Below are positions 1 to 7,839 of a stretch of 8,119 nucleotides of DNA, in pieces; positions within the stretch are counted from its first letter, which is position 1; every line of letters begins with the position of its first letter. This stretch comes from Acetobacteraceae bacterium (lineage in GTDB: Bacteria; Pseudomonadota; Alphaproteobacteria; Acetobacterales; Acetobacteraceae). The stretch lies in the NCBI GenBank assembly GCA_027340195.1, contig DAHWNE010000413.1, positions 1 through 8,119 on the forward strand, read 5' to 3'. Under the pieces are notes generated by a model, which saw nothing but the letters and a program-made list of their open reading frames with translations, was not told the DNA's origin and made no database searches. Both the position numbers and the translations under genes were made by a program.

Positions 1-659
1 TTGCCGCGCAGCCCGGTGACCACCGCCACCGGCAGGTTGCGGGCGACGAGCACCGGGCCTTGTTCGATATGCAGCTCGAACCAGGCGGCAAGCCGGGCCG
101 GGTCGAGCAGCCGCGCGCCCTCGGCGATGGCGGGGACGTCAGCGCCGGTCGCCGCCATCGCCTCGGCCAGGGTCTCGCCGTCGCCCAGCCGTGGGGTCGC
201 TAGATCCTCGGCACCGAGGTCGCCGAACAGGGCCGAGGAGCCGAGATAGGGGCGCCCGAACCAGGCGCTTTCCTCGCCGCGCAAGGCGAACAGGCACAGA
301 TCCCGCCGCCGTCCCGGCAGATCGCGCAGCGCGGCCAGCGCCAGCAGGCCGGCGACGACGCCGGCGGCGCCGTCGAAATTGCCGCCTTGCGGAACCGAAT
401 CCAGATGCGAGCCGCAGGAGACGGACGCCAGGCCCGGGTCCGCGCCGGGCAAGGTGACCACCAGATTGGCCGCCCGGTCGCGCCGGGTGGCGAGGCCCAG
501 CGCGTGCGCCGCCGCGGCGATGTGATCGAGCGCGGCCGACTCGGCGGCGGCATAGCTTGGGCGGGTGATGCCGGTGCCGTCCCAGCCGATACGGTGCAGG
601 GCGGCGAACAGCGCCTCCGCGCTGGCGGCGGCGTCGGCGGTGAGGCTTGGTTCAGGCAA
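1..659 (-). CDS. M20-family N-carbamoyl-L-amino-acid hydrolase / ureidosuccinase-like amidase (5' part, runs off left edge)
   Basis: This is a Zn-dependent hydrolase of the hydantoinase/carbamoylase family (N-carbamoyl-L-amino-acid hydrolase, beta-ureidopropionase, allantoate amidohydrolase). Family members release CO2 and NH3 from an N-carbamoyl group in the cytoplasm. The first 219 residues are present, about half of the usual ~410. Visible motifs are GSHLDSVPQGGNFDGAAGV (residues 83-101), RGEESAWF (127-134) and ELHIEQGPVL (195-204). By family knowledge H85, D96, E130 and H197 are metal ligands and E129 the general base. All are intact; the last ligand histidine lies beyond the edge. An in-frame stop at 666-668 forces the start to the TTG at 657-659, which has GGTGA six bases upstream. 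The start overlaps the pyrD stop by 8 nt, so translation is probably coupled. The exact substrate cannot be read from half a protein. The pyrD/pyrK context suggests N-carbamoyl-aspartate, but hydantoin-derived or beta-ureido substrates remain possible. Confidence 0.9.
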   Translation of the reverse strand, partial: MPEPSLTADAAASAEALFAALHRIGWDGTGITRPSYAAAESAALDHIAAAAHALGLATRRDRAANLVVTLPGADPGLASVSCGSHLDSVPQGGNFDGAAGVVAGLLALAALRDLPGRRRDLCLFALRGEESAWFGRPYLGSSALFGDLGAEDLATPRLGDGETLAEAMAATGADVPAIAEGARLLDPARLAAWFELHIEQGPVLVARNLPVAVVTGLRG

Positions 660-1599
660 CGGGGTTCACCCAGGCGAGTTCCGGTTCGTCGGTTTCCTCG
701 GTGCGCATCGCCCCGGTCAGCTCCGAGACGCGGGCGATGTCGTGGCGTTCGCAGAACCGGTCGAGCCCGGCGATGATCGCGTCCATCGCGGTCGGATCTC
801 GGAACGTCGCGGTGCCGACCTGCACCGCGGTGGCGCCGGCGAGCAGATATTCCACCGCGTCGGCGGCGTCGGCGATGCCGCCGCAGCCGATCACCGGGAT
901 GCGAACGGCGCGGGCGCATTGCCAGACCTGGCGCAGCACGATCGGCTTGATCGCGGGTCCCGACAGCCCGCCCAGCACGTTGCCCAGGCGCGGGCGGAAA
1001 GTTTCGGTATCGATCGACAGCGCCAGGATGGTGTTGGCCACCACCAGCGCGTCGGCGCCGGCGGCCTCGGCCGCGCGCGCCACCGGGGCGATCTCGCCAA
1101 CGTTGGGCGTGAGCTTCACCCATAGCGGGAGTGCGGTCGCCGCGCGCAGCGCCCGGACCGCGGCCGCGGTGCTGTCCTCGCGCATTGCGAAAGCCTGGCC
1201 GTCGGCTTCGAGATTGGGGCAGGAGATATTGGCCTCGATCGCCGCCACCCCGGGGACCGACAGCGCCGCCGCCAGGCTGGCGAACCCTTCGGCGGTGGGG
1301 GCGGAGATGGAGGCGACCAGCGGCGGGGCGAAGGCGGCGAAGAAGGGGACCGTATGTTCCAGAAAATGCGCCACCCCCTGGGAGGGGATGCCGATCGAGT
1401 TCAGCATCCCGCCGGCGGTCTCGGCCACCCGCGGCAGCGGATTGCCGAGGCGCAACTCGCGGGTGATCGTCTTGGTGACAAAGGCCCCGAGCCGGTTGAG
1501 GTCGAGCGCGCGGGCCATCCCCTCGCTGAAGGTGCCGGAGGCGGGCATCACCGGGTTGGCCAGGGTCAGCGTGCCGATGCGAACCGAGAGATCGGTCAT
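652..1599 (-). CDS. pyrD: Dihydroorotate dehydrogenase, class 1B-type catalytic subunit
   Basis: A 315-residue FMN TIM-barrel enzyme interconverting dihydroorotate and orotate. Class 1B enzymes work in the cytosol with a PyrK partner and NAD, and PyrK is encoded just upstream. Visible features are VTKTIT (41-46), MLNSIG (65-70), ISCPN (125-129) with C127 as the expected catalytic base, VKLTPN (161-166), ANT (188-190), and the phosphate-binding GCGGI (238-242) and VGTA (261-264). The orotate contacts known from the family (K43, N67, N124, N129, N189) look conserved. The stretch after N129 (LEADGQAF) and the one after N67 (SIGIPSQG) depart from the usual class 1B NVKxGGxxFG and NAIGLQNPG, so this may be a divergent, possibly catabolic paralogue. 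The ATG at 1597-1599 has GAGG at 1607-1610 and overlaps the pyrK stop as ATGA. An upstream in-frame ATG at 1698 lies inside pyrK and was not used. A dihydropyrimidine dehydrogenase-like substrate is the main alternative. Confidence 0.9.
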   Translation of the reverse strand: MTDLSVRIGTLTLANPVMPASGTFSEGMARALDLNRLGAFVTKTITRELRLGNPLPRVAETAGGMLNSIGIPSQGVAHFLEHTVPFFAAFAPPLVASISAPTAEGFASLAAALSVPGVAAIEANISCPNLEADGQAFAMREDSTAAAVRALRAATALPLWVKLTPNVGEIAPVARAAEAAGADALVVANTILALSIDTETFRPRLGNVLGGLSGPAIKPIVLRQVWQCARAVRIPVIGCGGIADAADAVEYLLAGATAVQVGTATFRDPTAMDAIIAGLDRFCERHDIARVSELTGAMRTEETDEPELAWVNPVA

Positions 1600-2396
1600 T
1601 CCAGCGCCTCGCGCGCGTCGAAGACGGGACCATCGTAGCATACTCGGCGATGCAGCACCTGGCCGTCGACGCGGAAGGACCGGACGCAGCAGAAACACAT
1701 CCCGAGGCCGCAGGCCATCTGCTGTTCCAGCGCCACCATCGCCGGGATGCCGAAGCCTTGCGCCAGCCGGCGCACCACTTCGAGCAGCCGTGCCGAGCCG
1801 CAGGTGAACAGCGCATCGCAGCGTCCGTCGGCGATCATGCCGCGCAGCAGGCGCTCGACATGGGCCGGGCCGGAGGTGCCCTCGGCATCGGTGACCGGGA
1901 TAACCCGGGCGCCTGCGGCGCGGAACGCATCGTCGGCCACCATCAGCGACGGGCGGCGGGCCGACAGGATGGCGGTGACCTCCATTCCGCGCGCACGGGC
2001 CGCGGCGCCGAGCGGGGCGAGGGTGGCGAGGCCGGCGCCACGGCCGAGGGCGACGATGTGGCGCCAGCCTGGCTCCAGGGTAAAGCCGTTCCCGAGCGGG
2101 CCGAGCAGATCGAGGCGGTCGCCGGGGACCAGCCCGGCAAGGCCGCGTGTGCCGATGCCGGTGACCTTGAACAGGAACGAGACCTCGCCGCTGGCGGGAT
2201 CCGCACCATAGACGCTCATCGGCCGGCGCAGGAACGGCGTGCCGGCGGGGGAAGCGGGGCAGAGCAGCTGGAAGAACTGGCCCGGGCGCGCCTGCGAGGC
2301 GGGCGCGCCGGCGCGCACGCGAATACGGTGGTATTCGGCGTTGAGGGATGCGCTTTCGAGGACCTCTGTCTGCTGGACGGCGACCTCGCCGGTCAT
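1596..2396 (-). CDS. pyrK: PyrK-like FAD/[2Fe-2S] electron-transfer subunit of dihydroorotate dehydrogenase
   Basis: A 266-residue ferredoxin-reductase-type protein that passes electrons between NAD(H) and the FMN of the class 1B PyrD encoded immediately downstream. Domain order is an FAD-binding beta barrel (about 5-105, with the FAD motif RRPMS at 57-61), an NAD-binding domain (about 112-225, glycine-rich GRGAGLATLAPL at 118-129, TCGSARLL at 198-205), and a C-terminal [2Fe-2S] segment. The cluster cysteines are C229, C234, C237 and C253 (C-x4-C-x2-C-x15-C), followed by the typical YDGPVF. C236 is an extra cysteine inside the cluster. The nucleotide loop differs from the common GGGIGxAPL form, with an arginine in it. 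Length is normal for PyrK. The ATG overlaps the transporter stop as ATGA and has no obvious ribosome site of its own, which implies translational coupling. Partnership with the neighbouring PyrD is inferred from family and adjacency. Confidence 0.9.
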   Translation of the reverse strand: MTGEVAVQQTEVLESASLNAEYHRIRVRAGAPASQARPGQFFQLLCPASPAGTPFLRRPMSVYGADPASGEVSFLFKVTGIGTRGLAGLVPGDRLDLLGPLGNGFTLEPGWRHIVALGRGAGLATLAPLGAAARARGMEVTAILSARRPSLMVADDAFRAAGARVIPVTDAEGTSGPAHVERLLRGMIADGRCDALFTCGSARLLEVVRRLAQGFGIPAMVALEQQMACGLGMCFCCVRSFRVDGQVLHRRVCYDGPVFDAREALE

Positions 2397-3607
2397 GTCA
2401 GCGCGGCACCGCGGCGTTCCGGGATCAGCAGCGCCATTGCGATGAGGTCGATGATGTAGAGGACCGCGAGCAGCGCGATGGCGGTGGGGAAGCCGTGTTT
2501 GGCCAGAATGCCGCCCACCACCACCGGGCCGAAGCCGCCGATGAAGCGGCCGATGTTGAACAGCACGTTCTGCGCCGTCGCGCGGGCGGCGGTGGGGTAG
2601 AGCTCGCTCATCAGCGCGCCGTAGCCGCCCAGCATCCCGTTGATGAAGAAGCCCAGCACGGCGCCGCCGATCAGCAGGGCGCCGGGCGATGCAAGGCGCG
2701 AATAGAGCACCACCATGATGGCCGCACCCAGCATGTAGCCCATGAAGCTGGGGCGGCGGCCGATGCGGTCGGCCAGGATACCGAAGCACCAGATGCCGAG
2801 ACCCATGCCCAGGATCGTCACCACGATCCAGCTCGCGGTGCCCACCAGACCGAGGTGCAGCTTGCCGTTGAGGTAGCTCGGCAGCCAGATCATCACGCCA
2901 TAGTAGCCGAAGTTCTGCACCCCGCAGAGGATGATCATGCCGAGGCTGATTTTGGCCGTTGCGGCATCGGCGACCAGCAGGCGCAGCGATTGTGCCTCGC
3001 TGGTGGCGTGCTTGCGCTCGAACAGCGCGGGCTCGTGCAGGCGGCGCCGGATCAGGAATGCGGCGAGTGCCGGGATGATGCCGACGGCGAACATCCCGCG
3101 CCAGCCGATCAACGGCAGCAGGGCGGGGGTGACCAGCGCGGCCACCAGCACGCCCGCCTGCCAGCCCAGTCCGACATAGGAGGAGACGCGGGCCCGCTGC
3201 GAGGCCGGCCAGGCCTCCGCGGCCAGGGTCATGCCGATGCCGAATTCGCCTCCCAGGCCGAGGCCGGCGATGGCGCGGAAGATGAGCAGCTGGGTGTAGC
3301 TCTGCGCCAGGGCGCAAGCGCCGGTGAACACCGCGAACACCAGAATGGTCCAGGTCAGGACCCGGACCCGGCCCAGGCGGTCGGCCAGGGTGCCGAACAG
3401 GATCCCGCCCACGACCGCGCCGACCAGGGTGTAGGTGAACAGCGCCCCGATCTGCGTCGGAACCAGGTGCAGCGCATGGGCGATCGGGCCGACCATGAAG
3501 CCCAGGATCAGCAGGTCGAACCCGTCCATGGCGTAGCCGACGGCGGAGCCGAGAAGGGCGCGGCGGGCTTCGGGGGTGATGGTTTCGGTGGCGGTGGTGG
3601 CGGACAA
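2393..3607 (-). CDS. MFS transporter, AAHS/sugar-porter-like, putative importer for the pyr-like operon
   Basis: A 404-residue inner-membrane protein of the major facilitator superfamily with about 12 hydrophobic helices in two halves. The first helix carries GYAMDGFDLL (24-33), the acidic pattern seen in aromatic-acid/H+ symporters and sialate-type carriers. The loop 2-3 signature is GTLADRLGR (72-80), repeated in the second half as GILADRIGRR. The segment RAIAGLGLGGEFGIG lies in helix 4. The frame stays open upstream to 3835, but the residues before 3607 look like non-coding translation. The TTG at 3605-3607 has GAAGGA nine bases upstream and puts the first helix about 18 residues in, so I chose it. 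It is the first gene of a four-gene operon and overlaps pyrK by 4 nt. Substrate is unknown. Downstream PyrD/PyrK and carbamoylase suggest orotate, dihydroorotate or a related pyrimidine/hydantoin, but this is inference. Confidence 0.88.
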   Translation of the reverse strand: MSATTATETITPEARRALLGSAVGYAMDGFDLLILGFMVGPIAHALHLVPTQIGALFTYTLVGAVVGGILFGTLADRLGRVRVLTWTILVFAVFTGACALAQSYTQLLIFRAIAGLGLGGEFGIGMTLAAEAWPASQRARVSSYVGLGWQAGVLVAALVTPALLPLIGWRGMFAVGIIPALAAFLIRRRLHEPALFERKHATSEAQSLRLLVADAATAKISLGMIILCGVQNFGYYGVMIWLPSYLNGKLHLGLVGTASWIVVTILGMGLGIWCFGILADRIGRRPSFMGYMLGAAIMVVLYSRLASPGALLIGGAVLGFFINGMLGGYGALMSELYPTAARATAQNVLFNIGRFIGGFGPVVVGGILAKHGFPTAIALLAVLYIIDLIAMALLIPERRGAALT

Positions 3608-3616
3608 AGCGGCGGG

Positions 3617-3622
3617 TCCTTC
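3617..3622 (-). promoter_or_regulatory. Ribosome binding site deciding the TTG start of the MFS gene
   Basis: GAAGGA on the minus strand, nine bases before the TTG at 3605-3607. It is the best purine-rich match in the plausible start region, and no ATG or GTG with a comparable site lies near the first membrane helix. It supports a TTG start for the operon's lead gene. Confidence 0.6.
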
Positions 3623-3740
3623 AACAGCAAAGGGGAGGAATGGCTTTTCGGCGATGCGGGTGTCAAGCGTCTTGGGCGCAGCGGAATGAGGCTTCCCGCC
3701 ATGTCCGTCGCCGGCGCGGCTCCACCGCGCGGTCCCGGTA

Positions 3741-3767
3741 GCCATAACGGCGCAAACCGGCCATAAC
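3741..3767. promoter_or_regulatory. Paired GCCATAAC direct repeats in the divergent promoter region
   Basis: The 200-bp region between the divergently read MFS operon (start 3607) and the DAHP synthase gene (start 3808) contains two exact copies of GCCATAAC, at 3741-3748 and 3760-3767, 19 bp apart start to start. CATAAC resembles a -10 box at four of six positions, so the copies may be tandem -10 elements for the plus-strand gene. Alternatively they could be half-sites for a regulator. The stretch is less GC-rich than its surroundings. I see no convincing -35 partner on either strand, so the function is open. Confidence 0.3.
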
Positions 3768-3794
3768 CGCCCTGATCTCGGCGCGTTTCGCCGC

Positions 3795-3799
3795 AGGAG
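3795..3799 (+). promoter_or_regulatory. Ribosome binding site of the DAHP synthase gene
   Basis: AGGAG eight bases upstream of the ATG at 3808. It settles the start of the shikimate gene and argues against later in-frame starts. Confidence 0.75.
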
Positions 3800-3807
3800 C
3801 CGTTGCA

Positions 3808-5187
3808 ATGACATCCACCTGGACCCCGACCTCATGGCGCGCCCGCCCGATCCGTCAGGCGCCCGTCTATCCTGACCCGGCTGCCCTGGCCGGGGTGGAA
3901 TCCCGGCTACGGACTTATCCGCCGCTGGTGTTCGCCGGTGAGGCGCGGCGGTTGAAGGCGGGGCTGGCCCAGGCCGCCGACGGCCGCGCCTTCGTCCTGC
4001 TGGGCGGGGATTGCGCCGAGAGCTACGCCGAGTTCACCGCCAACATCCTGCGCGACAGCTTCCGGGTGCTGCTGCAGATGGCGGTGGTGCTGACCTTCGG
4101 CGCCTCGGTGCCGGTGGTGAAGATGGGGCGCATGGCCGGGCAGTATGCGAAGCCGCGATCCTCCGACACCGAGACCCGCGACGGCCAGACCCTGCCCAGC
4201 TATCGCGGTGACATCATCAACGGGCCCGAGTTCACCGCCGCCGCGCGGGTGCCAGATCCGGCGCGGATGGAGACCGGTTATTTCCAGGCCGCGGCCAAGC
4301 TCAATCTGCTGCGCGCCTTCGCCTCCGGCGGCTACGCCGATCTGCACGAGGTGCATCGGTGGAACCTGGGTTTTGTCGAACGCTCGCCGCTGGCCGATCG
4401 CTACCGCGATCTTTCGGCGCGGATTGATGAGACGCTGGCCTTCATGGCCGCCTGCGGGATGACCAGCGCCACCACGCGGGATTTGCGCGAGACCGATTTC
4501 TATGTCGCGCATGAGGCGCTGCTACTGCCTTACGAACAGGCGCTGGCGCGGGTGGATTCCACCACCGGGGACTGGTACGGGTGTTCGGCGCATTTCCTTT
4601 GGATCGGCGACCGCACGCGCCAACTGGATGGGGCGCACGTGGAGTTCCTGCGTGGGCTCGGCAATCCGCTCGGCATGAAGGTCGGCCCGACCCAGGAAGC
4701 CGATGACCTGCTGCGCCTAATCGACCGGCTCAATCCGGCCAACGAGGCGGGCCGGCTAACCCTGATCGCGCGTATGGGCGCGGACAAGATTGCGGCCAGG
4801 CTGCCGCCGCTGGTACGCGCGGTGGAGCGCGAGGGGCGCAAGGTGGTCTGGATCACCGACCCGATGCACGGGAACACCGTCACCGCCGCCGGCAATCTGA
4901 AGACCCGCAGCTTCGATGCGATCCTTTCCGAGGTACGGGGCTTCTTCGATATTCATGCCGCGGAGGGAAGCTGGGCCGGTGGCGTGCATGTGGAGATGAC
5001 CGGTCAGGACGTGACCGAGTGCATCGGCGGAGCGCACCGGCTGACCGAGGCCGATCTCGGCCAGCGATACGAAACGTTCTGCGATCCGAGACTGAATGCC
5101 GAACAGTCGCTGGAACTCGCGTTCCTGGTGGCCGCCGAGCTGAAGCGCCGGCGCGAGGCGTCGGCACCAGCGCTGGCGGCCCAGTAG
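3808..5187 (+). CDS. aroG: Class II 3-deoxy-7-phosphoheptulonate (DAHP) synthase
   Basis: A cytosolic 459-residue enzyme that condenses phosphoenolpyruvate with erythrose 4-phosphate, the first committed step of the shikimate pathway to aromatic amino acids. It belongs to the class II (plant/Mycobacterium) type, and its length is close to the mycobacterial enzyme. Diagnostic motifs are [11 protein letters not shown] (66-76), [24 protein letters not shown] and [19 protein letters not shown]. The four metal ligands expected from the family, C69, H354, E396 and D426, are all present. The start is supported by AGGAG eight bases upstream. It is transcribed divergently from the pyr-like operon and is followed 46 bp later by a phosphoribosyltransferase gene on the same strand, with no T-tract terminator between them, so the two are likely cotranscribed. 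I see no fused chorismate mutase domain. Family assignment is very secure; the gene symbol follows mycobacterial usage for class II enzymes. Confidence 0.97.
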
Positions 5188-5221
5188 GCGGCGGCGTCGC
5201 CGGACCGGCGCCGCGCGCCAC

Positions 5222-5230
5222 GGGAGGGGG
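5222..5230 (+). promoter_or_regulatory. Ribosome binding site of the phosphoribosyltransferase gene in a GC-rich spacer
   Basis: GGGAGGGGG lies three bases before the ATG at 5234, with the GGGAGG core seven bases from the start. The 46-bp spacer (5188-5233) contains GC-rich self-complementary sequence but no run of T, so I do not call an intrinsic terminator there. Confidence 0.65.
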
Positions 5231-5233
5231 CCG

Positions 5234-6346
5234 ATGAGTGACGATGCGGAGATTTCCGCCCGCACCGACGCCTATTTCAACCGCACCCGCGCGATCGTCG
5301 CCCGGTTCGGCGACAAGCAGGTCACCTACGCGATCTTTCTTCGCCGGCCGGTGATTTCGGCGCCGCGGCTGATGCTGGACTGGCTGCGGACCGTGGTGCA
5401 GAGGCGGGGGGTAGAGATCGACGTGCAGCTGCTCCAGCCGGAGGGAGCCTGGGTCGGCGCCGGCGAGCCGATCGTCTATCTCACCGGCAGCCTGCTCGCG
5501 CTGTCCGACCTGGAAACGATCCTGCTGCAGAAGCTCGGCCCCGCTTCGGTTGCCGCGCATCACGCCTATCAGATGTGTCTGGCACTGCCGAAAGTGGCGT
5601 TCCTGGCGATGGAAGCGCGGCACTGCGCGGGCGCCGAGATGCAGGATATGATGGGCTACGCCGCCGCCACCGGCAGCGCGGCGGCGAAGCGGGAGGGCGC
5701 ACGCGGGTTCATTGGCAACGCCAACGACATGACGGCGCATTGGTTCGGCAATCCGCGCGGGCTGGGCACCATGCCGCATTCGCTGATCGGCTATGCGGGA
5801 TCCACCCTGCGCGCCGCCGAGATGTACCGCGAGACCTTTCCCGACGAGCCGATGACGGTGCTGGTCGATTACTTCGGCCTCGAGATCACCGATGCGCTGG
5901 CGGTCTGCGCGCGGTTTCCTGACCTTGCTGCATCCGGGGGGCTCTCGTTCCGGCTGGATACGCATGGCGGTCGGTTTCTCGAAGGCCTCGATCCGGCGGC
6001 ATCCTACGCGGTGCTGGAGCGGCACGTGCCGGGCGCGATCCGGCGCTACCGTTCGGAGACCGAGCTTCGGTTCCTGGTCGGCACCGGGGTCTCGGCGGCG
6101 GCGATCTGGCGGTTCCGGGAGGCGATGGATCAGGCCGGCTACCGGGCGGTGAAGATCGTCGCGTCCTCGGGCTTCGGGGTGGAGAAGTGCCGGGTCATGG
6201 CAGACGCGCAAGCGCCGATCGACGTGGTGGGCACCGGCAGCTTCATTCCCGATGCCTGGCACGAGACCTACGCGACCGCCGATATCGTGGCCTATGACGG
6301 CGCGCCGCTGGTGAAGCTGGGCCGCGAGTTCCTGCTGCGGCGGTAG
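5234..6346 (+). CDS. Nicotinate phosphoribosyltransferase family protein (PncB-like)
   Basis: A 370-residue protein of the nicotinate/nicotinamide phosphoribosyltransferase superfamily. The expected reaction is nicotinate plus PRPP to nicotinate mononucleotide, entering the NAD salvage (Preiss-Handler) pathway in the cytosol. It opens with TDAYFNRTRA (11-20), matching the family's TDxYFxRT substrate segment. It then shows ARHCAG (128-133), GTMPHSLIG (178-186) with H182 at the place of the family's phosphorylated histidine, FRLDTHGGR (239-247), KIVASSGF (307-314) and VGTGSFIP (332-339), the phosphoribosyl-binding end of the barrel. It is shorter than E. coli-type PncB (about 400) and closer to the compact archaeal/bacterial type. 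No signal or membrane segment is seen. It follows DAHP synthase at 46 bp and ends 6 bp from a convergent gene. Substrate specificity within the superfamily (nicotinate versus another base) cannot be fixed by eye. Confidence 0.85.
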   Translation: MSDDAEISARTDAYFNRTRAIVARFGDKQVTYAIFLRRPVISAPRLMLDWLRTVVQRRGVEIDVQLLQPEGAWVGAGEPIVYLTGSLLALSDLETILLQKLGPASVAAHHAYQMCLALPKVAFLAMEARHCAGAEMQDMMGYAAATGSAAAKREGARGFIGNANDMTAHWFGNPRGLGTMPHSLIGYAGSTLRAAEMYRETFPDEPMTVLVDYFGLEITDALAVCARFPDLAASGGLSFRLDTHGGRFLEGLDPAASYAVLERHVPGAIRRYRSETELRFLVGTGVSAAAIWRFREAMDQAGYRAVKIVASSGFGVEKCRVMADAQAPIDVVGTGSFIPDAWHETYATADIVAYDGAPLVKLGREFLLRR

Positions 6347-6352
6347 CGGCGG

Positions 6353-6820
6353 TCAGGCTTCCCGGGCCTTTATCATGCGTAGCGGCGTGTAGCTCAGCAG
6401 CAGGGTCGAATCGGAGCGCAGCACCTGGTTGCGGGTGCGCACCAGCCCGCGCCCGGGGCGGGAGCGCGATCGGCGCGCCTCGATCACCTCGCATTCCACA
6501 TGGATGGTGTCCCCGACGCAGCAGGGGGCGTGAACGGTCAGCTGCATCTCCAGGAAGGCGAAGCCGGTGTGTTGCATCGTGGCGTGGACCAGCAGCCCTT
6601 CGGCGAAGGCATAGACCATGGCGCCGGGCACCACGCGGCGGCGGATGTCGCTTTCCTCGGCCAGGAATTCCTGGTTGGTGAACAGCACCTCGGTCATGCC
6701 GGTGACGCCGATGAAATTGACCAGGTCGGCTTCGGTCAGGGTGCGCCCGATGGTGCGGAAGCGGCGGCCGAGGGGGAGGTCCTCGAAGCAGAGTCCGAGG
6801 CCCAGGGTTTCCAGGCTCAT
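6353..6820 (-). CDS. MaoC-like hotdog-fold protein lacking the hydratase catalytic pair
   Basis: A 155-residue single hotdog-domain protein resembling MaoC / (R)-specific enoyl-CoA hydratase family members. It begins FEDLPLGRRFRTIGRTLTEA (12-31), like the family's typical F-x-D-L-x-x-G opening. VVPGAMVYAFAEGLL follows as the long central hotdog helix, then VGDTIHVECEVIEAR as the strand segment. In canonical MaoC hydratases the sequence SGDxNPxH provides the catalytic Asp and His. Here the aligned stretch reads TGMTEVLF, with M42 and F47 in those places, so (R)-hydratase chemistry is unlikely. A binding, thioesterase-like or altered lyase role is possible. The ATG at 6818-6820 has GGAGA seven bases upstream. 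The frame runs open up to 6952, but that extension is arginine/proline-rich and spans the regulatory gap, so I excluded it. It is a lone gene, convergent with the phosphoribosyltransferase and divergent from yghU. Confidence 0.82.
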   Translation of the reverse strand: MSLETLGLGLCFEDLPLGRRFRTIGRTLTEADLVNFIGVTGMTEVLFTNQEFLAEESDIRRRVVPGAMVYAFAEGLLVHATMQHTGFAFLEMQLTVHAPCCVGDTIHVECEVIEARRSRSRPGRGLVRTRNQVLRSDSTLLLSYTPLRMIKAREA

Positions 6821-6916
6821 CGCGCGGTCTCCAGCGGGGGCGGGGGTGTTGGTACCGCGGTTTCGCCGCAGGAACCAGGGCAGGGATCGCCGCGGCGGGG
6901 AACATCCGATAGGCTC

Positions 6917-6943
6917 CCCCGGAACCCGGGGCCGTCGGCCCCG
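6917..6943 (+). promoter_or_regulatory. Overlapping, mutually exclusive hairpins in the yghU leader
   Basis: Two GC stems share bases. One is CCCCGG/CCGGGG with a 3-nt loop (6917-6931). The other is CGGGGCC/GGCCCCG with a 3-nt loop (6927-6943). They cannot form together, because 6927-6931 belongs to both. The second ends 11 nt before the GGAGGA ribosome site of yghU. It could be a leader structure or an operator-like palindrome for the 146-bp divergent gap (6821-6966). In DNA this GC-rich such stems also arise by chance, so the role is uncertain. Confidence 0.3.
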
Positions 6944-6954
6944 CCCTGCCATCC

Positions 6955-6960
6955 GGAGGA
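6955..6960 (+). promoter_or_regulatory. Ribosome binding site of yghU
   Basis: GGAGGA six bases before the ATG at 6967, a near-perfect site that fixes the start of the glutathione transferase gene. Confidence 0.8.
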
Positions 6961-6966
6961 CCGCCC

Positions 6967-7839
6967 ATGACCGATGCCGCCGATTACACTCCGCCCGAGG
7001 TCTGGACCTGGACCAAACCGAGCGGCGGGCGGTTCGCCAGCATCAATCGCCCGATCGCCGGGGCCACCCATGAGAAGGCGCTGCCGGTCGGGCGGCATCC
7101 GCTCCAACTCTATTCGCTGGCCACGCCGAATGGGCAGAAGGTCACCATCATGCTGGAGGAATTGCTGGCGCTCGGCCATTCCGGGGCGGAATACGACGCG
7201 TGGCTGATCCGCATCAGCGAGGGCGATCAGTTTTCAAGTGGATTCGTCGCGGTCAACCCGAACTCGAAGATCCCGGCGCTGCTGGACCGCAGCGGTCCGA
7301 GCCCGATCCGGGTGTTCGAGTCGGGGGCGATCCTGATGTATCTGGCCGAGAAGTTCGGCGCCTTCCTGCCCACCGCCACTGCGGCACGCGCCGAGTGCCT
7401 GTCGTGGCTGTTCTGGCAGATGGGCAGCGCGCCCTATCTGGGCGGCGGGTTCGGGCACTTCTATGCCTATGCGCCGAGCAAGATCGAATACGCGATCGAC
7501 CGCTTCGCAATGGAGGTGAAGCGCCAGCTCGATGTGCTCGACCGACGGCTCGCAGAGAGCGCCTATGTCGCCGGCCCTGACTACACCATCGCCGACATGG
7601 CGATCTGGCCCTGGTACGGCGGGCTGGTGAAGGGGGCGCTGTACGGGGCGGGCAAGTTCCTCTCGGTGCAGGACTATACGCATGTACAGCGCTGGGCCGA
7701 TGCGATCGCCGCCCGCCCGGCGGTGCAGCGTGGGCGGATGGTCAACCGGGTGAACGGCGAGCCGGCGGAGCAGCTGCACGAACGCCACGACGCCGGCGAT
7801 TTCGCGACCCGGACCCAGGACAAACTGGGCGCGGCGTAG
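6967..7839 (+). CDS. yghU: YghU-type glutathione S-transferase / glutathione-dependent disulfide reductase
   Basis: A 290-residue cytosolic protein that matches E. coli YghU (about 288 residues) along nearly its whole length, including the characteristic N-terminal VWTW and INRPIAGATHEKALPVG segments. YghU is a nu-class GST that binds two glutathiones and reduces disulfides rather than acting as a strong transferase. The thioredoxin-like domain (about 45-130) carries YSLATPNGQKV with T53 and N55 (this family uses Thr/Asn in place of a catalytic Cys or Ser), NPNSKIPAL (97-105), where the cis-proline is P103, and FESG (117-120), which contacts glutathione. The all-helical domain follows, with FWQMGSAPYLGGGFGHF and YTIADMAIWPWYG. 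The C-terminal EQLHERHDAGDF tail is also YghU-like. A GGAGGA site precedes the ATG. It is likely monocistronic, diverging from the hotdog gene and converging on recG with an 11-bp gap. Confidence 0.97.
   Translation: MTDAADYTPPEVWTWTKPSGGRFASINRPIAGATHEKALPVGRHPLQLYSLATPNGQKVTIMLEELLALGHSGAEYDAWLIRISEGDQFSSGFVAVNPNSKIPALLDRSGPSPIRVFESGAILMYLAEKFGAFLPTATAARAECLSWLFWQMGSAPYLGGGFGHFYAYAPSKIEYAIDRFAMEVKRQLDVLDRRLAESAYVAGPDYTIADMAIWPWYGGLVKGALYGAGKFLSVQDYTHVQRWADAIAARPAVQRGRMVNRVNGEPAEQLHERHDAGDFATRTQDKLGAA

What the first reader, a model, noticed from the sequence alone, without database searches (positions are those of the whole stretch)
1..3607. Candidate orotate/pyrimidine catabolic operon: transporter + PyrK + PyrDB + carbamoylase
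Seen: four minus-strand genes overlap end to end, encoding an MFS carrier, a PyrK-like electron-transfer subunit, a class 1B-type PyrD and an M20 N-carbamoyl-amino-acid hydrolase. Known: class 1B DHODH was first described as the NADH-linked orotate-reducing enzyme of an orotate-fermenting clostridium (Zymobacterium oroticum), whose pathway runs orotate, dihydroorotate, N-carbamoyl-aspartate, aspartate. Biosynthetic pyrD has no reason to be coupled to an importer and a carbamoylase, and most proteobacteria use quinone-linked class 2 PyrD for biosynthesis. Inference: this is a catabolic unit for orotate or a related pyrimidine/hydantoin in an aerobic-type proteobacterium. The ring-opening dihydroorotase/hydantoinase is not in the window and would be expected to the left of position 1 or elsewhere.
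Basis: partly seen in the sequence, partly recalled or inferred. Interest (0 to 1): 0.72.

Follow-up and report, generated by a model that had tools for sequence, protein, structure and literature searches.

The report
Bacterial operon for eating orotate
A run of overlapping genes, conserved from this bacterium to Cupriavidus and found on some plasmids, encodes a transporter, a two-subunit dihydroorotate dehydrogenase and a hydrolase of the carbamoylase family, and is predicted to break down the pyrimidine intermediate orotate as food, although database labels on plasmid copies call the dehydrogenase biosynthetic.

Summary
In detail: MFS carrier, PyrK, class 1B PyrD and an M20 carbamoylase lie in one overlapping minus-strand run; the carbamoylase is cut by the contig end. 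A second contig of the same assembly overlaps that end by 34 exact bases and adds the carbamoylase C-terminus and a PyrE-like gene, then a convergent unrelated gene. The dihydroorotase expected "to the left" is not there, but class II dihydroorotase is in the run in 26 of 80 relatives and aspartase in 8 (Cupriavidus necator: MFS-PyrK-PyrD-M20-PyrC-AspA). Biosynthetic use is unlikely: 29 of 29 named proteobacterial genomes with this PyrKD type also have class 2 PyrD, as does a same-genus genome with the cluster. All 73 carbamoylase-linked PyrD rows keep the orotate-site residues; 14 of 15 unlinked ones do not. Orotate catabolism is the best reading, by sequence and synteny only; no activity was measured. 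New here: a candidate gene clade for carbamoyl-aspartate hydrolase, apparently recruited twice, and an operon PyrE paralogue that lost its catalytic-loop lysine and may be an orotate sensor. Against: class 2 PyrD and canonical PyrE were not found in the window's own 66%-complete assembly.

The parts
2393..3607 (-). MFS transporter, aromatic acid:H+ symporter type (404 aa); predicted orotate importer and first gene of the operon
   Evidence: TIGR00895 308 bits (below its cut-off of 418.6), PF07690; 95% identical orthologue in G005, same place. In other loci a TRAP transporter stands in this place.
1596..2396 (-). PyrK, FAD/NAD/[2Fe-2S] electron-transfer subunit of class 1B dihydroorotate dehydrogenase (266 aa)
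   Evidence: PF10418 45.9 bits; best PDB match 1ep1_B, with the four cysteines aligned.
652..1599 (-). PyrD class 1B (315 aa); predicted to run as orotate reductase
   Evidence: NF005574 338.6 bits over cut-off 269; PDB 1ep1_A E 4.8e-74; orotate-site positions K43 N67 G70 N124 C127 N129 N189 T190 (roles recalled).
3..659 (-). N-terminal half (219 aa) of an M20 N-carbamoyl amino acid amidohydrolase; predicted N-carbamoyl-L-aspartate hydrolase. C-terminus, followed by a PyrE-like gene, is on contig C328 of the same assembly (L045:6-647 and 644-1318).
   Evidence: NF006771 183.6 bits over half the profile; 34-base exact overlap of contig ends and continued frame; full-length G005 orthologue over TIGR01879 cut-off.

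Best explanation
The run MFS-PyrK-PyrD-M20-(PyrE-like) is a conserved operon that most likely degrades imported orotate as a nitrogen and carbon source. Shown by sequence: the gene order, the class 1B PyrKD pair with the orotate-site and iron-sulfur residues, the M20 carbamoylase, and the same set plus class II dihydroorotase, and in some loci aspartase and a malic-enzyme-like gene, in relatives. Inferred: the MFS carrier (TRAP in other lineages) brings orotate in; PyrKD, driven by NADH, reduces it to dihydroorotate, the reverse of biosynthesis; a dihydroorotase (operon PyrC in many relatives, in this genome probably the class I enzyme) opens the ring to N-carbamoyl-L-aspartate; the M20 enzyme splits that to aspartate, CO2 and ammonia; aspartase can pass aspartate to fumarate. 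The operon PyrE-like protein of this lineage lacks the catalytic-loop lysine and is inferred to be a specialised paralogue, perhaps an orotate-sensing one, and not the housekeeping OMP-forming enzyme.
For: Synteny: of the 80 best PyrD relatives (a capped list), PyrK adjoins PyrD in 80, M20 is in the same run in 61, M20 with a dihydroorotase-family gene in 29, and transporter + M20 + that gene in 18. Cupriavidus necator L120: divergent HTH gene, then MFS-PyrK-PyrD-M20-PyrC-AspA, PyrC 452 bits over cut-off 293 and AspA 703 over 681. Second DHODH: class 2 PyrD in 29 of 29 genomes; two class 1B PyrD over cut-off in 6 of 7 Bacillota. Substrate: site residues KNGNCNNT in 73 of 73 M20-linked PyrD rows, altered in 14 of 15 unlinked, and the unaltered one (L121) is cut by its contig end and groups with an M20-linked row. 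M20 in two separate clades: 63 pseudomonadotal rows (100/99) and 7 Bacillota rows (97/89), so a carbamoylase seems to have joined PyrKD twice. Transporter (MFS or TRAP) and ring-opening enzyme (class II or class I type) also vary by lineage around a constant PyrKD + M20 core. Plasmid copy in P. putida with dihydroorotase, malic enzyme and a chemotaxis receptor downstream, as annotated. Same genus: G004 has the cluster, class 2 PyrD and canonical PyrE.
Against: No activity, expression or growth data. The window's operon has no dihydroorotase and no aspartase. Class 2 PyrD and canonical PyrE were not found in G000 or G005, and their neighbourhoods in sister genomes were mostly not found there either, so gap and loss cannot be told apart in these two assemblies. 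M20 is outside the run in 19 of 80 loci and not within 7 kb in 15. The Bacillota ring-opening enzymes score over the allantoinase cut-off in two (L116, L127) of the three scanned, though all three also pass the class I dihydroorotase model. In Paenibacillus L135 the PyrKD is the only class 1B PyrD over cut-off and a gene that I read by eye as PyrF follows it, so that member may be biosynthetic. M20 specificity for carbamoyl-aspartate rests on context: the HSG[ATV][VI]PR motif is in 59 of 64 pseudomonadotal cluster M20, but in 0 of 7 Bacillota ones, and 1 of 24 off-cluster paralogues has it.
Confidence: 0.84

Rival explanations
1. The operon is biosynthetic in this lineage: PyrKD and the operon PyrE have replaced class 2 PyrD and canonical PyrE, and the M20 gene does something else.
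For: Neither class 2 PyrD nor canonical PyrE is found in G000 or G005, while a class I pyrC is present in both, beside pyrB in G005 and beside its evident orthologue in G000.
Against: Same-genus G004 carries the cluster together with class 2 PyrD and canonical PyrE. The operon PyrE of G000/G005 has Leu where the catalytic-loop Lys stands in the solved OPRTs it aligns to, and 8 of 8 alphaproteobacterial genomes with a Lys-less copy in or next to the operon keep a canonical one as well. A carbamoyl-aspartate hydrolase in a biosynthetic operon would drain PyrB's product (inference). G000 is 66% complete.
Confidence: 0.06
2. The same chain of reactions serves another substrate: a substituted orotate, or a hydantoin or other cyclic ureide, with PyrKD adapted to it.
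For: M20 carbamoylases and cyclic amidohydrolases also serve hydantoin and purine routes; two of three scanned Bacillota members carry an enzyme over the allantoinase cut-off; PyrKD paralogues with altered sites sit in other contexts.
Against: 73 of 73 M20-linked PyrD rows keep the orotate-site residues, including the 7 Bacillota ones at 48-62% identity to the window, while 14 of 15 unlinked ones, at 53-67% identity, do not. The ring-opening gene in the run is class II (E. coli PyrC type) in 26 of the 31 loci that have one, far over the dihydroorotase cut-off in the three scanned.
Confidence: 0.07
3. The operon scavenges dihydroorotate or carbamoyl-aspartate released by other cells, with PyrKD running in the oxidative direction to feed UMP synthesis.
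For: PyrE-like genes lie in the run in 37 of 80 loci, and in 8 of 8 tested genomes with a Lys-bearing PyrE in or next to the operon it is the only PyrE over cut-off, so some operons do hold or adjoin a housekeeping pyrE.
Against: M20 would destroy the scavenged carbamoyl-aspartate (inference); aspartase and malic-enzyme-like genes in several loci point down to central metabolism; the window lineage's PyrE is Lys-less.
Confidence: 0.03

Closest known systems
Reductive orotate pathway of Zymobacterium (Clostridium) oroticum: orotate, dihydroorotate, carbamoyl-aspartate, aspartate (recalled; no paper on it was opened)
   Same: The gene set matches the steps one for one in relatives with PyrC; PyrKD is the same class of enzyme.
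   Different: Here in Pseudomonadota and some Bacilli, as a gene run with a transporter in 38 of 80 loci, and on plasmids; the carbamoylase is of the M20 family; the window's copy has no dihydroorotase of its own and has a PyrE-like gene.
Biosynthetic class 1B dihydroorotate dehydrogenase, PyrK-PyrD of Lactococcus lactis (PDB 1ep1-1ep3)
   Same: Both subunits, catalytic cysteine, orotate-site residues and PyrK cysteines.
   Different: Next to a transporter and an M20 carbamoylase; accompanied by a second DHODH in the genomes tested (L135 excepted); the second-copy PyrD of six Bacillota, presumed biosynthetic, form a separate clade at 100/100.
M20 hydantoinase/carbamoylase family (TIGR01879: AllC, N-carbamoyl-L-amino acid hydrolase, beta-ureidopropionase)
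   Same: Full-length orthologue over the family cut-off; solved relatives include 3n5f and 1z2l.
   Different: Own clade; HSG[ATV][VI]PR in 59 of 64 pseudomonadotal cluster members against 1 of 24 off-cluster paralogues, 10 of which have HAGTTP; none of the source names shown for the 120 listed homologues is carbamoyl-aspartate hydrolase, and many have no name.
X1 and X2 dihydroorotate-dehydrogenase-like families of Barba et al. 2013 (PMC4016543; section 5 and passages read)
   Same: DHODH-like enzymes found by genomic context; X1 beside a cyclic amidohydrolase and an M20 peptidase.
   Different: Those are clades apart from class 1B, tied to purine genes (X1) or pyruvate-ferredoxin oxidoreductase (X2); the window's PyrD is class 1B with PyrK. 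An X2-like gene is in this genome on contig C137.

Membership tests
Class 1B dihydroorotate dehydrogenase (PyrK-PyrD) | PyrD over class 1B family cut-offs | tested here: met
   NF005574 338.6 against 269; TIGR01037 283 against 270
Class 1B dihydroorotate dehydrogenase (PyrK-PyrD) | Catalytic cysteine and orotate-site residues | tested here: met
   C127 and K43, N67, G70, N124, N129, N189, T190 present; their roles are recalled from Lactococcus structures
Class 1B dihydroorotate dehydrogenase (PyrK-PyrD) | PyrK with FAD/NAD part and four [2Fe-2S] cysteines beside PyrD | tested here: met
   PF10418; alignment to 1ep1_B; cysteine spacing found in 80 of 81 PyrK rows
Class 1B dihydroorotate dehydrogenase (PyrK-PyrD) | NAD-linked activity | not testable with these tools
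   needs enzyme assay
M20 hydantoinase/carbamoylase family | Family score over cut-off | tested here: met
   G005 orthologue 270.9 against 204 for TIGR01879; the window fragment alone is half a protein at 134.3
M20 hydantoinase/carbamoylase family | Metal-site motif residues H85, D96, E129, E130, H197 | tested here: met
   invariant in 8 of 8 aligned, window fragment included; the metal-ligand role is recalled
N-carbamoyl-L-aspartate hydrolase (ureidosuccinase) | Activity on N-carbamoyl-L-aspartate | not testable with these tools
   assigned from context only
Reductive orotate pathway (Z. oroticum type) | Orotate reductase, ring opening and carbamoylase genes in one unit | tested here: inconclusive
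   All three in one run in 29 of 80 loci; the window operon lacks the ring-opening gene, which is present elsewhere in the genome as a class I dihydroorotase
Biosynthetic pyrimidine operon | Only dihydroorotate dehydrogenase of the genome | tested here: inconclusive
   Not met in 29 of 29 named genomes and in G004; in G000 itself no second one was found, at 66% completeness
Orotate phosphoribosyltransferase (operon PyrE, contig C328) | Catalytic-loop lysine (Lys103 of the Salmonella enzyme, recalled) | tested here: not met
   YVRKHPLGIGR against YVRKKPKGFGR; Leu aligned to Lys of 4ohc and 3m3h; 229 bits, below the cut-off of 245

The most novel reading that the evidence does not exclude
A widespread, partly plasmid-borne orotate-eating operon exists whose carbamoylase is the missing gene for N-carbamoyl-L-aspartate hydrolase, recruited independently in Pseudomonadota and Bacilli, and in which duplicated orotate phosphoribosyltransferases have lost catalytic residues and become orotate sensors or switches of the pathway.
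Probability: 0.35. Interest if true: 0.75.

Novelty: new variant of a known kind. Interest (0 to 1): 0.6.

Why it matters
Orotate degradation was worked out biochemically decades ago in an anaerobe (recalled). If right, this operon gives it genes in many Pseudomonadota and some Bacilli and a candidate sequence for the carbamoyl-aspartate hydrolase. Genes labelled as pyrimidine biosynthesis, on plasmids too, would then be catabolic, which changes metabolic models and predicts strains that use orotate as food. It turns an old question into simple assays: growth on orotate, NADH-orotate reductase, ammonia release from carbamoyl-aspartate. The Lys-less PyrE paralogues are a testable case of an enzyme turned regulator.

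Tried and rejected
Looking left of base 1: the window is a whole contig, so I searched the assembly for PyrE, fetched the contig and found that C328 overlaps the window's end by 34 exact bases. The dihydroorotase/hydantoinase expected there is not present.

Synteny test for true loss of class 2 pyrD and canonical pyrE in G000/G005: inconclusive. Near the pyrE query only an ABC-transporter gene (G005) and a regulator gene (both) matched well, each on its own contig; the genes next to pyrD2 in G004 were not found in either.

M20 specificity motif: I hoped that HSG[ATV][VI]PR would mark carbamoyl-aspartate specificity. It is in 59 of 64 pseudomonadotal cluster members (2 more have Lys for Arg; L097, L106 and L117 lack it), but in 0 of 7 Bacillota cluster members, and one off-cluster paralogue (L166) of 24 has it, with HSGATPR in three more. 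Not used as proof.

PyrE as the housekeeping enzyme in all operons: rejected, since the copies split into Lys-bearing and Lys-less (32 and 22 of 54 rows; some rows lie outside the gene runs), and the genome counts follow that split. Of the 26 genomes, 8 have a Lys-less copy and also a canonical one (L060, L061, L063, L065, L067, L071, L111, L122; for L122 the canonical match is reported with one stop inside), 8 have one Lys-bearing copy and no other over cut-off (L068, L072, L084, L088, L089, L090, L096, L124; four of them with other hits of 20-25 bits). Not counted: L076, L099, L128 (Lys-less, Burkholderiales, no second match over cut-off; the model also gives only weak hits in Cupriavidus L118 and L120, which have no operon PyrE, so it does not see their biosynthetic PyrE), L134 (keeps the Lys, otherwise altered) and L091, L093, L097, L098, L118, L120 (no operon PyrE).

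Literature: ten searches of the held library. Three returned nothing; in the listings of the others I saw no paper on an orotate catabolic operon or on a gene for ureidosuccinase, but searches listed only 15 of 25 and 20 of 30 papers, and only titles and abstract starts were read, apart from PMC4016543 (section 5 and passages). The library is open-licence only, so absence from print is not shown.

Rows dropped before counts or trees: one search left out L153, L156, L164, L167 (copies of cluster genes) and L106 (fragment); one search left out L059, L124, L136 (same genomes as G005, G010, G020). The 73 rows still include those three doubles. The 65 'near' loci include L079 (a 33%-identity M20 outside the run) and L105, L111, L132 (M20 divergent). 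Gene calls in loci come from my own ORF script and may miss or cut genes; it missed PyrK of G016, which tblastn then found.
Full report
What is there. The window is the whole of contig C229 (8119 bases) of an assembly of 2.24 Mb in 450 contigs, 66% complete. On the minus strand, in reading order, lie an MFS carrier (3607-2393), PyrK (2396-1596), PyrD (1599-652) and the first 219 codons of an M20 amidohydrolase (659-3), overlapping by 4, 4 and 8 bases. PyrD passes class 1B cut-offs, PyrK has the DHODB iron-sulfur domain, the M20 fragment matches the hydantoinase/carbamoylase family, and the carrier resembles aromatic acid:H+ symporters below cut-off. Right of the operon, on the plus strand, class II DAHP synthase starts at 3808.

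The left side. Contig C328 of the same assembly begins with the reverse complement of window bases 1-34 and continues the M20 frame; a 224-aa PyrE-like gene follows, overlapping by 4 bases, then, on the opposite strand, a gene that I read by eye as the GTPase der. The same-genus genome G005 has the same order on one contig. The operon of this lineage is thus MFS-PyrK-PyrD-M20-PyrE-like, with no dihydroorotase or hydantoinase in it. A class I dihydroorotase stands on contig C152; its neighbour is the evident orthologue of the G005 gene that scans as pyrB.

Conservation. Among 100 genomes (own, genus, family, class) eight, own included, have a PyrD at 60% identity or more over nearly the whole length, and in the seven relatives M20 lies next to PyrD. 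G004 of the same genus has the MFS and PyrK genes and the first 21 codons of PyrD at its contig end. A scan of named genomes gave the 80 best loci, with more beyond the limit. In those 80, PyrK adjoins PyrD in 80; M20 is in the same gene run in 61 and within 7 kb in 65; a dihydroorotase-family gene is in the run in 31 (26 class II, 5 class I type), 29 of them with M20; PyrE is in the run in 37; MFS or TRAP transporter in 38; aspartase in 8. Family scans of examples confirm class II dihydroorotase in G024, G074 and Cupriavidus necator, and aspartate ammonia-lyase (NF008909 over cut-off) in G024, C. necator, Bosea and Pullulanibacillus. A malic-enzyme-like gene (best match NF009501, below its cut-off) follows in Cupriavidus sp. 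WGlv3 and precedes in Pullulanibacillus. Regulators and transporters differ by lineage: LysR, XRE-type HTH or PucR; MFS or TRAP.

Is it biosynthetic? Class 2 PyrD passes its cut-off in 29 of 29 named proteobacterial genomes holding loci of this PyrD type (26 with M20 linked, 3 without; one, L124, is the same genome as G010), and in G010, G016, G020, G024 (in two pieces), G043 and G074. Six of seven Bacillota genomes with the cluster have two class 1B PyrD over cut-off; Paenibacillus L135 has one. In a tree the six second-copy Bacillota PyrD, presumed biosynthetic, form one clade (100/100) apart from all cluster PyrD. In the window's own assembly and in G005 neither class 2 PyrD nor canonical PyrE was found, and synteny could not decide between gap and loss. 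G004, which has the cluster, has both, so gap is more likely.

Which substrate? Eight positions that align to orotate-site and catalytic residues of the solved Lactococcus enzyme (K43, N67, G70, N124, C127, N129, N189, T190; roles recalled, alignment) read KNGNCNNT in 73 of 73 M20-linked PyrD rows. In 14 of 15 rows without M20 one or two of them are changed (N67 to F, Q, C or A; N129 to T; T190 to A or G); the exception, L121, is cut by its contig end just after PyrD and groups with the M20-linked G010 in the tree. Distance from the window does not explain this: the 7 Bacillota members, at 48-62% identity, keep the set, and the unlinked ones that changed it stand at 53-67%. Defluviicoccus RHO2_bin_2 holds one locus of each kind (L078, L119). 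The rows are related to each other, so this is a pattern and not 88 independent trials.

The carbamoylase. In a tree with off-cluster M20 paralogues, 63 pseudomonadotal cluster sequences form one clade (100/99) and 7 Bacillota ones another (97/89), separated by paralogues. A carbamoylase therefore seems to have joined PyrKD twice, which is what one expects if its reaction is needed there. Of 5387 homologues found, the best 120 are listed, and no source name shown among them is carbamoyl-aspartate hydrolase. Its specificity is inferred from context; a motif that I tried is not diagnostic.

The PyrE-like gene. In 54 aligned PyrE rows from these loci and relatives the catalytic-loop lysine is kept in 32 and lost in 22 (Leu 14, Gln 4, Ala 3, Val 1); the window lineage has Leu, and four Burkholderiales copies (L099, L125, L128, L129) also have a shortened loop and a changed PRPP motif. 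Eight of eight alphaproteobacterial genomes with a Lys-less copy in or next to the operon have another, canonical PyrE over cut-off; eight of eight with a Lys-bearing copy there have only that one over cut-off (ten other genomes of that call could not be put on either side). So in some lineages the housekeeping pyrE sits in or by the operon, and in others, this one included, a specialised paralogue does. What the paralogue does is unknown; orotate sensing is my guess.

Mechanism, with shown and inferred steps apart. Shown: genes, order, residues, co-occurrence. Inferred: import of orotate; reduction by NADH through PyrKD; ring opening by a dihydroorotase; decarbamoylation by M20 to aspartate, CO2 and ammonia; onward flow through aspartase in lineages that have it. 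Since M20 would destroy the product of PyrB, the operon is expected to be tightly controlled and switched on by orotate.

Mobility. Seventy-one plasmid records hold a PyrD match at E 1e-60 or better, 53 of them Klebsiella. Four were looked at. A Pseudomonas putida conjugative plasmid has HTH / hypothetical-MFS-PyrK-PyrD-Zn hydrolase-dihydroorotase-hypothetical-malic enzyme-chemotaxis receptor; a Klebsiella grimontii plasmid has MFS / PyrK (annotated oxidoreductase)-PyrD-Zn hydrolase-pyrC-HTH-hypothetical; Nitratireductor has HTH / TRAP-PyrK-PyrD-Zn hydrolase-PyrE; Roseomonas has LysR / MFS-PyrK-PyrD-Zn hydrolase-PyrE. All four carry the label 'pyrimidine nucleotide biosynthetic process' on PyrD.

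Novelty and limits. The pathway chemistry is old (recalled). In the open-licence library I saw no description of this operon (listings only), which does not show that none exists. I rate it a new variant of a known kind.

Noticed in passing
L109, L113, L115, L123; L095, L104, L112, L126; L087; L086, L101: PyrKD pairs without M20 and with altered orotate-site residues sit in other contexts: a Rieske oxygenase and an asparaginase (scanned in L109); a molybdenum hydroxylase of xanthine dehydrogenase type (scanned in L104); an arylmalonate decarboxylase/racemase-like gene (L087); an unknown protein of about 235 aa (L086, L101). They look like PyrKD recruited for other rings.
   Followed up: partly
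L067:14504-14812, L082:14000-14329, L099:15358-15684 and others: An orphan protein of about 105 aa stands at or near the end of the operon in 13 loci, with a second set of 5 similar-sized ones; the three scanned have no match over cut-off in Pfam, and the one scanned in NCBIfam has none.
   Followed up: partly
L190 (Klebsiella grimontii plasmid); 53 Klebsiella plasmid records with a PyrD match: A copy of the gene set with pyrC lies on a Klebsiella plasmid next to an arsenic operon, with a biosynthetic label; only this one of the 53 records was looked at.
   Followed up: partly
L040:954-5535 (own contig C137): A DHODH-like protein beside a 1192-aa protein that I read by eye as pyruvate-ferredoxin oxidoreductase, the arrangement that Barba et al. 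2013 call X2; function unknown.
   Followed up: no
L041:3359-5126 (G024 contig C68): A second, diverged PyrK-PyrD pair (35-37% identity) beside an ABC transporter with a Peripla_BP_6 binding protein.
   Followed up: no
window 5234-6346 +: A nicotinate phosphoribosyltransferase-like protein, below all cut-offs, next to class II DAHP synthase; the pairing is kept in G005.
   Followed up: no
L103, about 2568-7030: PyrK-PyrD-PyrE-PyrC-PyrE in a row with a TauD-type dioxygenase upstream and no M20; PyrD has N129 changed to T.
   Followed up: no
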